The translations under genes were made by a program, and so were the position numbers. DNA of 64,000 nt. Origin: Acidimicrobiales bacterium mtb01 (GTDB taxonomy: Bacteria > Actinomycetota > Acidimicrobiia > Acidimicrobiales > Ilumatobacteraceae). Positions within the stretch are counted from its first letter, which is position 1; every line of letters begins with the position of its first letter. This document shows, in pieces, positions 55,896 through 59,110 of the stretch. The notes under the pieces were generated by a model. The model had not been told where the DNA came from, did no database searches, and saw nothing but the letters and a program-made list of their open reading frames with translations. The stretch lies in contig NBNI01000007.1 in assembly GCA_004379135.1 (NCBI GenBank), positions 793,501 through 857,500 on the forward strand. Direction: 5' to 3'.

Positions 55896-56984
55896 TCAGG
55901 CCATGCGGCAGATGTGCCCGATGCGGGGATCGACGCGGCCAGCGAGCATCTCGCCGTACAACGTCTCCACGTTCTCGGCGGCCTGCGTGGTCTCGAACCG
56001 CAGCCAGCCACTGGCCCACGACGCGAAGCGATCCCAGGCCTCCCCCACGCGCTGGTCGAGCCCGTCGCGACCCCACTCCTTGGTGCGCAGCGCGATCTGC
56101 GACGGCGCGAAGAAGAACTCGGGCTTGGGTCCGGGCATCGCCCCACCGTCGCGCGGAGCCGACCAATGCGTTCCGCCCACGACCATGCTGTAGGCGAGGT
56201 CGTCCTCGAAGATCCGATGCACCCCGCCGGTGACGGCTTGATCGCCCGCGATGTCGACGTAGGCGGCGCGGCCCTCGGGCCACGACGCCGAGCCCTGCGC
56301 CACTTCGTCATAAGTGACGACCGATGAATAGCAACCGAGATCCTTCACGAACTCGGCGTTGCCGTTCGAGGTGATGCCGACGACGTTCACCCCGGGACGT
56401 GTCGCGGCCAAGTACGCCGCCCCGATCGCGGTCTTGCTCGACGCGCTCGACACCACCACGGTCGTGACATCCGAGTCGCCCAACACGCTCTGGCCCAAGA
56501 AGTCATCGATCATGAACGACGTCATGAACAACGGCCACAACACCATCTGATGCGCTTCGCGGTCGGCGCGATACGTGGGGTCGGCGGCGGTGTTGGAGTA
56601 GCGGTTGTACGCGGCGGCCATCGGCGAGCGGTGCTCGGCCAGATCGGTGAATCCGCGGGCATCGACGCGACCGGGTTGCACCACGAGCTCGGTACCCATG
56701 GGCAAGTAGCCATAGAAGCGTTGGCCGACCTCGAGAGCCGACTTCGACTCGACCACATCGGCGAATCCCCACACCGGAACCCGGCCCCAGGAGCCCTCGC
56801 CCACCGGGAAGAAGTCCCAGTAGCGCAGGCCGTCTCCGAACACGGCGTAGGTGATGTTGTTGGCCGTGAGCGCGAACGCGTCGATCGCCAACCGCGCCTC
56901 GCCGTCGGCCAGCGGTCGTGACGGAGTGCGGTTGAGGCGGCTGACGGACAGATTCGAACGATCGACATCAATGACGACGGACAT
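55896..56984 (-). CDS. DUF2855 protein
   Basis: A 362-residue protein of the DUF2855 family, related to MDR-type reductases (LADGEARLAIDAFALTANNI; VVVSSASSKTAIGAAYLA with a nucleotide-binding-like turn; DIAGDQAV). Likely a quinone-reductase-like enzyme, but substrate and cofactor are not established. ATG 56984 is chosen as the conserved start (MSVVIDVDRSNL). It is divergent from the selenoprotein-like gene. Confidence 0.8.
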   Translation of the reverse strand: MSVVIDVDRSNLSVSRLNRTPSRPLADGEARLAIDAFALTANNITYAVFGDGLRYWDFFPVGEGSWGRVPVWGFADVVESKSALEVGQRFYGYLPMGTELVVQPGRVDARGFTDLAEHRSPMAAAYNRYSNTAADPTYRADREAHQMVLWPLFMTSFMIDDFLGQSVLGDSDVTTVVVSSASSKTAIGAAYLAATRPGVNVVGITSNGNAEFVKDLGCYSSVVTYDEVAQGSASWPEGRAAYVDIAGDQAVTGGVHRIFEDDLAYSMVVGGTHWSAPRDGGAMPGPKPEFFFAPSQIALRTKEWGRDGLDQRVGEAWDRFASWASGWLRFETTQAAENVETLYGEMLAGRVDPRIGHICRMA

Positions 56985-57082: not shown

Positions 57083-58237
57083 GTGAACGGCGACCAGGCC
57101 ATGCGGGAAATGGGCAAGAACCTCCCGGTCCCGACCTTCGACACCACTCCGTGGGCATCGGCCCCTCGCCTGCGCGAGGCGACCGTGGCCATCGTGACAT
57201 CGGCGGCGATCCACCGCGCCCACGACGACCGCTTCAGTGCGGGCGACACCGGCTACCGGGTCATTCCCTCCGATGCGCGCGACCTGGTGATGGGTCACTG
57301 GAGCCCGAATTTCGACCACACCGGATTCCAGATCGACCCCAACGTGGTGTTCCCCATCGATCGCCTCCGTGAACTGGCCGACGACAAGGTCATCGGCCGC
57401 GTCGCGCCGCGCCACTTCTCGTTCGCCGGCAATCAGCCCGATGACGTGTCGACCATTCGCCTCGACAGCGGACCGGCGGCGGCCACCGAACTGAGGCGCG
57501 ACGGGGTCGACGTCGTTCTCCTCACACCCGTTTGACCGCTTTGCACGCGCACCGTGAGTGTGCTCGCGCATGTGATCGAATCGGCCGGGATCGCCACGGT
57601 GGTTCTCGCGTCGATGCGCCCGGTCGTTGAGAAGATGCGTCCGCCCCGAGCGCTCTATTGCGAGTTCCCCCTCGGTCGCCCGCTCGGCAAGCCCGGTGAC
57701 GCCGAGTTCCAGCACCGCGTGATCGCGGAGGCGTTCGCTCTTCTCGACACCCCCGCCAGCCACGGGCCGACCATCGCCGACTTCGACGAGGTGGTCGAGT
57801 CCGACGAGCAGCCGGTCGCCTGCGCGCTACCGCCGCGATTCGACCCGAATCTTCCCGCCTGCGTCGACGAAGCGCGCGGATTGCGCAACGCCTACGACCG
57901 CGCGGTCGCCAAGCGTGGACACACCGATGTGGGTCGGGCGATCGACGCCGACGCGGTCCCGGATGCGCTGGCGGCATTCCACCGAATCGCGTCGGGTGAC
58001 GACTGGAAGACGGTCACGATCCCCGGCAAGAACACGGTCGCCGTCATGCACGACATCCGCGCGTATTACGAGGAAGCCGCACTCGAACTCGTCGGCACGG
58101 CCGGGGCGCGCGGTCTCGAGGCGTGGTTCTTCGAATCGACCGAGGCCGGCAAGACGACGCTCGCCGCGCGGCAGGCGATCAAGGACGGTGGCGGACCGTT
58201 CCCGTTCTGGTTCTACATGGCCCCCGGCCACCGCTGA
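57083..58237 (+). CDS. Selenoprotein B (GrdB/PrdB)-like protein with in-frame UGA (probable Sec151)
   Basis: One reading frame of 384 codons is interrupted only by TGA at 57533-57535, flanked by LLTPV and PLCTRTV. In homologues known to me this spot is a CxxC or UxxC redox motif, so UGA would give U-P-L-C (Sec151, Cys154). Residues before ([32 protein letters not shown]) and after ([37 protein letters not shown]) belong to the glycine/sarcosine/betaine/D-proline reductase selenoprotein B family. A hairpin 12-28 nt after the UGA fits a bacterial SECIS. GTG 57083 follows TACTGT (57071-57076) by 6 nt. If UGA is not decoded, only a 150-residue fragment would be made. Substrate unknown. Confidence 0.8.
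57533..57563 (+). promoter_or_regulatory. Candidate bacterial SECIS with UGA codon
   Basis: UGA at 57533-57535 is followed by a 6-bp stem (57547-57552 with 57558-57563, one G-U pair) and a CGUGA loop (57553-57557). The loop G (57554) is 19 nt from the UGA, inside the 16-37 nt range of bacterial SECIS elements. Confidence 0.55.
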
Positions 58238-59110
58238 TCAGGTCGACGAGCGGCGCTCGCGCGCGGCCGGCATCCAGTTGGGTCCGGCGGTCTCGTCGAT
58301 GCGCGACAGCAGGCGTTCGCCCACCGGCTCGACCAAGTTCAAGAACCGCATCGTCGACTCGGCTCCCACGTTTCGCCACTGCACGACACAGATCTCATTG
58401 GTGCGAGCCTCAATCTCGTCGCGCAACGCGAGTCCGGCCGCGGTGACGACTCCGTCGTGGGCCAACCCACGCGCTTCGAGATCGGCGAACGCGGTCTTCA
58501 GCGCTGCTTCATCGGCGCCACGACTCTGGGCGATCCAACCGCCGTAGTTGAGGTGAGCGTCATGGAGGATCCCGGCCTGCACGCGATCGATTCCGTTCGC
58601 GAGGAGCACCGCGAAATGGGTGTCGCCCCGCCACTCGCGCAGGCAGTTCACCGCCAACCAGGCCGACACGACCGGATCCTCGACCCGAGGCGCCTGTCGG
58701 TGAACAGCGAAGAGCACTCGGCCCGAATCGGGTAGCGCATCAGCCGCCGACCACAGCGTCGGTCCGAGCGCGGCGAGCCCGTCGCAGATGTCCGGCGCGT
58801 AGCGGCGCAAACCGACTCCGACCGCCTCGTTGCGAACGCGGTAGATCGCCTCCCACGACGTGTGTTGGCCGGCCAGTTCGACCGCCATCTGGATGAATGC
58901 CGGGTGGATCGAGAAGAACGCCGCCGACACCGCCTGATGGCCTGCCGGCAACAACGGAGCTGCGCGACTGGTGACGTAATAGCCGAGGCCGTTCGGAACT
59001 CCGAGCTTCGAATACGCGTCGATCGCGTCGGGGTCCCAGTAGATCCAACCGACCAAGCGGTGCGATGCGAAGGCCGCGCGCCGAGTGAGTTCGATCCAAT
59101 CCGGTTCCAC
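58238..59110 (-). CDS. SCO6745-family protein
   Basis: A 290-residue all-helical protein resembling the Streptomyces SCO6745/SalK family (RRAAFASHRLVGWIYW, RNEAVGVGLRRYAPD, VHRQAPRVEDPVV). Function is unknown in this family; a winged-helix-like C-terminus (FADLEARGLAHDGVVT) suggests MarR-like DNA binding could be possible. Its stop abuts the selenoprotein gene stop. Confidence 0.7.
   Translation of the reverse strand: MEPDWIELTRRAAFASHRLVGWIYWDPDAIDAYSKLGVPNGLGYYVTSRAAPLLPAGHQAVSAAFFSIHPAFIQMAVELAGQHTSWEAIYRVRNEAVGVGLRRYAPDICDGLAALGPTLWSAADALPDSGRVLFAVHRQAPRVEDPVVSAWLAVNCLREWRGDTHFAVLLANGIDRVQAGILHDAHLNYGGWIAQSRGADEAALKTAFADLEARGLAHDGVVTAAGLALRDEIEARTNEICVVQWRNVGAESTMRFLNLVEPVGERLLSRIDETAGPNWMPAARERRSST

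What the first reader, a model, noticed from the sequence alone, without database searches (positions are those of the whole stretch)
57083..58237. Probable selenoprotein with in-frame UGA and SECIS-like hairpin
The frame continues uninterrupted on both sides of TGA 57533, the family motif calls for a redox residue there (U-P-L-C), and a 6-bp hairpin with a GU-containing loop is placed correctly downstream. Gene finders would split it into two proteins. If real, the host must have selA, selB, selC and selD elsewhere.
Basis: partly seen in the sequence, partly recalled or inferred. Interest (0 to 1): 0.8.

Follow-up and report, generated by a model that had tools for sequence, protein, structure and literature searches.

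The report
Selenocysteine PrdB-like enzyme, extended form
This gene very probably reads a stop codon as selenocysteine, giving a lone, lengthened relative of the selenium subunit of D-proline reductase that is widespread in a little-cultured group of bacteria and whose substrate is unknown.

Summary
Confirmed. One frame (57083-58234, stop 58235-58237) carries a single in-frame TGA at 57533. The host genome holds tRNA-Sec (anticodon TCA), selA beside selB, and selD. The codon is TGA in 30 of 30 best matches of the order, own copy included, and in 80 of 80 named loci, while the true stop varies. The hairpin at 57547-57563 meets published bacterial SECIS rules and shows both-side base changes in 5 of 6 pairs across 25 homologues. 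A full-length homologue has TGC there and no hairpin. The protein is a PrdB/GrdB relative (Pfam GRDB) but not PrdB itself: it scores under NCBIfam's PrdB cut-off, has an extra ~150-residue helical domain, and its genome lacks the PrdA/GrdE partner family, as do 67 of 68 genomes with a strong match. A DUF2855 gene lies nearby more often than a uniform-placement estimate predicts. Best guess: a partner-free selenol reductase cleaving a bond next to a carbonyl; substrate unknown. PrdB selenoproteins of surface seawater are in print since 2005, so this is a new variant of a known kind.

The parts
57083..58237 (+). Selenoprotein gene, 384 residues with Sec at 151; GTG start, stop TGA 58235-58237
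57533..57535 (+). In-frame TGA read as selenocysteine (U151)
   Evidence: TGA in 30 of 30 (own included) and 80 of 80 loci; TGC in L177 and in paralogue L163
57533..57544 (+). Redox motif U-P-L-C (U151, C154)
   Evidence: columns 151, 152 and 154 invariant in 39 aligned rows, Sec written as C
57547..57563 (+). SECIS hairpin: stem GCGCAC/GTGTGC, loop CGTGA
   Evidence: rules for bacterial SECIS from a passage of PMC13188914
57107..57754 (+). PrdB/GrdB-like domain (about residues 9-224)
   Evidence: hhalign to a Terrisporobacter PrdB over 211 columns, E 1e-29; Pfam GRDB 36.3 bits against cut-off 22
57779..58234 (+). Extra C-terminal helical domain (residues 233-384), with conserved Cys247
   Evidence: model mean pLDDT 92.8; best Pfam match in the window's copy under its cut-off, E 0.0085; C247 invariant in 39 rows
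55896..56984 (-). Divergent neighbour, DUF2855 family
   Evidence: PF11017 335 bits; within 3 kb of the selenoprotein gene in 6 of 29 genomes that hold both, own included
58238..59110 (-). Convergent neighbour, HTH_67 family; a link to the selenoprotein is not supported: of 80 named loci only L072 has it

Best explanation
A true selenoprotein (the confidence given is for this). The UGA at 57533 is decoded as selenocysteine by SelB and tRNA-Sec, directed by the hairpin that begins 11 bases after it (17 bases to the loop). The enzyme is a PrdB/GrdB relative that works without the usual partner family PrdA/GrdE. Likely mechanism, inferred, at about 0.35: selenolate 151 attacks a carbon next to a carbonyl and expels a leaving group (amine, halide or thiol); Cys154 then resolves the adduct as a Se-S bond, which a thioredoxin-type donor reduces; the added helical domain takes over substrate binding or assembly from the missing partner. 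Shown here by sequence: Sec decoding signals and machinery, family kinship, no PF09338 (PrdA/GrdE) match in the genome, association with DUF2855. Inferred: chemistry, substrate, electron donor, role of the C-terminal domain.
For: Machinery: tRNA-Sec 65.8 bits against cut-off 47, anticodon TCA; selB 298 bits against 242.25; selA 401.8 against 267.9, beside selB; selD 326 against 125. TGA at the site in 30 of 30 and 80 of 80 loci (the sets overlap and the 30 include the own copy), while the last codon of the 80 is TGA 58, TAG 16, TAA 6. Hairpin in 25 diverse rows: 95.3% of cells paired against 69.6% (sd 2.6) in shuffles and at most 58.7% when slid; 37 cells changed on both sides, 0 of 500 shuffles as high. 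Sec/Cys pair: L177, 48% identical over residues 9-381, has TGC with 2 of 6 hairpin pairs. Co-occurrence in 298 genomes: gene and tRNA-Sec 100, gene only 13, tRNA only 76, neither 109; Fisher p 5.7e-17, relatedness ignored. Family: PrdB model 137 bits. Partner: PF09338, which recognises both PrdA controls, has no match here and matches in 18 of 298 genomes, only 1 of them among the 68 with a match of 200 bits or more.
Against: No protein or selenium was measured. 13 of 113 genomes with a match show no tRNA-Sec at the threshold used; G173 among them has a Cys copy, the others were not examined. Some pair measures do not exceed shuffles: the number of pairs with a both-side change (448 of 500 shuffles as high in the close set, 47 of 500 in the diverse set) and, in the close set, the number of pair types (500 of 500). 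L164 and L187 do not form the stem in this register. The chemistry is carried over from PrdB, 35-37% identical, and the missing partner could mean a quite different reaction. Gene neighbourhoods vary, so the substrate is open.
Confidence: 0.96

Rival explanations
1. The TGA is an ordinary stop and the region codes for two proteins, the second starting at GTG 57554.
For: A mechanical ORF list gives these two frames, and a hairpin of six pairs nearby is common under synonymous recoding.
Against: TGA in 80 of 80 loci while the terminal stop varies; in L177 the codon is TGC at the site itself; compensatory pair changes; the split would fall inside the PrdB domain at its active-site motif.
Confidence: 0.02
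2. Pseudogene, sequencing error, or a general reassignment of TGA in this genome.
For: Little: one relative, L162, does look frame-broken.
Against: The same codon in the matches of 30 genomes of the order; protein-like conservation after the TGA; TGA still ends this gene and 58 of 80 relatives.
Confidence: 0.01
3. The protein is a D-proline reductase in the strict sense, using a diverged PrdA.
For: PrdB is the best NCBIfam model; 35 and 37% identity to two annotated PrdB.
Against: 137 bits against a cut-off of 300, while a Terrisporobacter PrdB scores 424.7; no PF09338 match in the genome; an extra domain of about 150 residues; the two PrdB controls lie in one cluster with prdA, a small gene between.
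Confidence: 0.07

Closest known systems
D-proline reductase subunit PrdB (TIGR04483)
   Same: Homologous over residues 9-224, with the Sec-x-x-Cys motif; both annotated PrdB controls fetched also have TGA there.
   Different: Under the family cut-off (also L072 and L177); motif U-P-L-C instead of U-G-T-C; extra C-terminal domain; no PF09338 match in the genome.
Glycine/sarcosine/betaine reductase protein B (GrdB, GrdF, GrdH; Pfam PF07355)
   Same: Same superfamily; Pfam GRDB over its cut-off.
   Different: Matches only the later part of the GrdB-type models and stays under their cut-offs; no PF09338 match in the genome.
PrdB selenoproteins of seawater metagenomes (PMC1088965, PMC2398784)
   Same: Called PrdB and Sec-containing: 42 Sec against 1 Cys in the Sargasso set, 235 Sec against 110 Cys in GOS (passages and tables seen).
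   Different: The passages seen assign no host group; their sequences are not held and were not compared, so the present clade may be part of theirs.
FarB, GrdB-like protein proposed to cleave the C-F bond of fluoroacetate in Synergistota (PMC10838667)
   Same: GrdB-type selenoprotein proposed to act on a non-amine substrate, with a FarE partner said not to be a proprotein (passages seen).
   Different: FarB has a partner, FarE; here no PF09338 match exists. Sequences not compared.

Membership tests
Bacterial selenoprotein | In-frame UGA conserved as Sec or Cys in homologues | tested here: met
   TGA in 30 of 30 (own included) and 80 of 80; distant set 21 TGA, 1 TGC, 1 not mapped of 23; phylum set 16 TGA, 1 TGC of 17
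Bacterial selenoprotein | SECIS: loop of 3-9 nt with G in the first two places, stem 4-16 bp, 16-37 nt from UGA to loop | tested here: met
   Loop CGTGA, 6 bp, 17 nt (rules from the passage; its energy rule was not checked); covariation
Bacterial selenoprotein | tRNA-Sec, SelA, SelB, SelD in the host | tested here: met
Bacterial selenoprotein | Selenium found in the protein | not testable with these tools
   needs mass spectrometry or selenium labelling
Pfam GRDB (PF07355) | Score over the gathering cut-off | tested here: met
   36.3 bits against 22
D-proline reductase PrdB (TIGR04483) | Score over the curated equivalog cut-off | tested here: not met
   137.4 bits against 300; control PrdB 424.7
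D-proline reductase PrdB (TIGR04483) | Sec-x-x-Cys active site | tested here: met
   UPLC
D-proline reductase PrdB (TIGR04483) | Pyruvoyl partner PrdA in the genome | tested here: not met
   PF09338 no match in G000 (97.66% complete); both PrdA controls match it
D-proline reductase PrdB (TIGR04483) | Reduces D-proline to 5-aminovalerate | not testable with these tools
   needs an enzyme assay
Glycine reductase selenoprotein B (TIGR01917/TIGR01918) | Score over the curated cut-off | tested here: not met
   49.5 against 602.2; 60.0 against 65.45

The most novel reading that the evidence does not exclude
A self-contained selenoenzyme class of oxygen-respiring Actinomycetota: a PrdB-like selenol reductase that carries its own helical partner domain in place of the pyruvoyl proprotein and, with a DUF2855 enzyme, reductively removes an alpha substituent (halide, thiol or amine) from carbonyl compounds during aerobic catabolism.
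Probability: 0.3. Interest if true: 0.75.

Novelty: new variant of a known kind. Interest (0 to 1): 0.5.

Why it matters
PrdB-type selenoproteins are among the most numerous in seawater metagenomes (PMC1088965, PMC2398784; passages), yet characterised PrdB comes from clostridia (passage), and a 2026 review states that aerobic bacteria rarely retain selenoproteins (passage). Here 176 of 298 genomes of one order have tRNA-Sec and 113 of 298 a match to this protein; the window's own genome also has a COX1-family (haem-copper oxidase) gene at 512.7 bits. The extended, partner-free form gives a defined protein on which the function of such selenoproteins can be tested. It also points to a gap in annotation: the three members scanned (window, L072, L177) pass no NCBIfam cut-off, so the gene may be called as two short proteins (deposited annotation not checked).

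Tried and rejected
Hairpin alone as proof: rejected, since 6,188 of 20,000 synonymous recodings make some 6-bp hairpin nearby. Conserved operon: looked for in 21 loci and 81 loci; none common to all. ORF clusters that look like AMP-binding ligases (20 of 81), enoyl-CoA hydratases (11 of 81) and acyl-CoA dehydrogenases (two clusters, 7 of 81 each) recur; three such neighbours from other fetched loci were named by Pfam, the clusters themselves by eye, and no background rate was measured, so I draw no function from them. Fold: the whole model (mean pLDDT 89.0) has no Foldseek match with E up to 0.001; the best VIA row is a LacI-family protein, Z 8.0, rmsd 3.6, 139 aligned, within the tool's stated noise. 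The C-terminal domain alone: best Foldseek E 0.61; best VIA row Z 3.8, rmsd 4.6, 94 aligned; this does not show a new fold. No PDB chain by sequence at E up to 1. Formate dehydrogenase as a second selenoprotein: 9 matches in the own genome, none over the cut-off, none with an inner stop; other selenoprotein families were not sought. Phages: 1 weak match in 50,697 records. Rows without an inner stop besides those read: one search lists 7 such rows, of which only L177 was read; some listed rows have two TGA or a TAG inside and were mostly not read (G094 as L164; G500, G470 and G480 as L178, L179 and L189 at the site only). Paper searches: no listed title or abstract, and no passage that I saw, describes this extended form or selenoproteins of Acidimicrobiia; two papers hold 'selenoprotein' and 'Acidimicrob', one 'selenocysteine' and 'Acidimicrobiia', each with one or two occurrences, seen as listings only. 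The library holds open-licence papers only.

Full report
Observation. The frame 57083-58237 holds one inner TGA, at 57533, between two conserved halves. Of 9 relatives printed beside it, 6 have ATG where the window has GTG 57083. Under the standard code the region splits into ORFs of 183 and 227 residues.

Selenocysteine. The genome (2,555,180 bases, 7 contigs, 97.66% complete) has tRNA-Sec with anticodon TCA, selB with its winged-helix domain, selA directly upstream of selB and selD. The codon is TGA in 30 of 30 best matches of the order, own copy included, and in 80 of 80 named loci (the best 80 of 278 that the scan confirmed); the two sets overlap in genomes. In a distant set of 23 loci, 21 have TGA, one TGC (L163) and one could not be mapped (L162). 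In a phylum-wide set of 17 loci, 16 have TGA and one TGC (L177). L177 is 48% identical over residues 9-381; only 2 of 6 hairpin pairs form there, although its genome has tRNA-Sec. On the tree L177 falls within the long-form clade, at support of only 86/64.

SECIS. The stem at 57547-57552/57558-57563 with loop CGTGA meets the published rules on loop, stem and spacing. Among the 30 close rows it is 99.4% paired, with one pair changing on both sides (C-G to U-A, 12 rows). Among 25 diverse rows, 5 of 6 pairs change on both sides; 95.3% of cells pair against 69.6% in shuffles and at most 58.7% when slid; the covariation score is 0.747 against 0.281 (shuffled) and at most 0.222 (slid), 0 of 500 shuffles as high. 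The plain number of pairs with such a change is less telling: 448 of 500 shuffles reach it in the close set and 47 of 500 in the diverse set, and pair types in the close set do not exceed shuffles (500 of 500). RNAalifold finds the same six pairs unasked. The shuffles do not remove relatedness, and L164 and L187 do not form the stem in this register.

Co-occurrence. Over 298 genomes of the order, 113 match the protein and 176 have tRNA-Sec; both 100, gene only 13, p 5.7e-17 without correction for relatedness.

Family. Pfam calls it GRDB. The best NCBIfam model is PrdB at 137 bits, under its cut-off of 300, while a Terrisporobacter PrdB scores 424.7. The match ends near residue 224; residues 233-384 form a confidently modelled helical domain with no Pfam match better than E 0.0085 (under that family's cut-off) in 37 members and no convincing structural relative. 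On a midpoint-rooted tree of about the first 235 residues the 16 long-form rows hold together at 100/93, apart from the two PrdB. PF09338, which recognises both PrdA controls, has no match in this genome and matches in 18 of 298; all 18 also match the protein, but only one (G285) is among the 68 whose match reaches 200 bits. The own genome has a single GRDB match.

Neighbourhood. DUF2855 lies divergently next to the gene. It occurs in 62 of 298 genomes. With the gene at 200 bits or more: both 29, gene only 39, DUF2855 only 33, neither 197; Fisher p 2.1e-6. Of the 29, 6 have the two within 3 kb (own, G107, G113, G262, G200, G170; read from the tables). Placing one DUF2855 gene uniformly in 3.5 Mb and allowing 8 kb gives p 6.5e-11, or 5.9e-9 for 5 of 28 without the own genome, which raised the question; relatedness is not corrected for. 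Among 80 named loci, 9 show DUF2855 in the held flanks, 5 of them divergent and adjacent as here; some are the same genomes. This hints at a shared pathway. DUF2855 looks to me like a medium-chain reductase (recalled, not tested); no paper in the library holds the name.

Mechanism. In the PrdB/GrdB family the substrate-binding subunit releases ammonia and the UxxC-type pair is the redox centre (passages in PMC13188914). That Sec attacks the carbon is the proposal for GrdB-like FarB, a precedent for a non-amine substrate (PMC10838667 passages). Without a pyruvoyl partner the substrate need not be an amine. That the C-terminal domain replaces the partner is inference.

Verdict. It is a new variant of a known kind: PrdB-like, extended, without the known partner, and widespread in Acidimicrobiales-type genomes. 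The group is inferred from the names of the nearest records, such as L072, an Acidimicrobiia MAG at 79% identity.

Noticed in passing
L163 (G173) and L177 (G322): Cys forms (TGC) of the family; L163 lies in a genome without tRNA-Sec at the threshold used, L177 in one with two matches to it.
   Followed up: partly
L170 (G087): Paralogue with motif U-P-L-D: TGA and a strong hairpin kept, but the second Cys is replaced by Asp.
   Followed up: no
L164 and L187: Subgroup with motif U-P-D-C-C whose downstream hairpin does not form in the register of the others.
   Followed up: no
G322, G462, G494; G091, G225, G276, G278: Genomes with two matches to tRNA-Sec over the cut-off; some may be split or repeated contigs.
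   Followed up: no
L162 (G189): A copy whose N-terminal half was not found in frame with its C-terminal half; possible pseudogene or assembly error.
   Followed up: no
L081, L091, L118, L122, L136: Record names (Bifidobacterium breve, Ferrithrix, Chloroflexi, Acidobacteria) that look odd for this clade: mislabelled bins or transfer.
   Followed up: no
order-wide: 76 of 298 genomes have tRNA-Sec but no match to this protein at the thresholds used, which suggests other selenoproteins in the order.
   Followed up: no
L190:2200-2922: A true PrdB gives a weak match (22.5 bits, cut-off 125) to NCBIfam's UGSC family, another seawater selenoprotein family.
   Followed up: no
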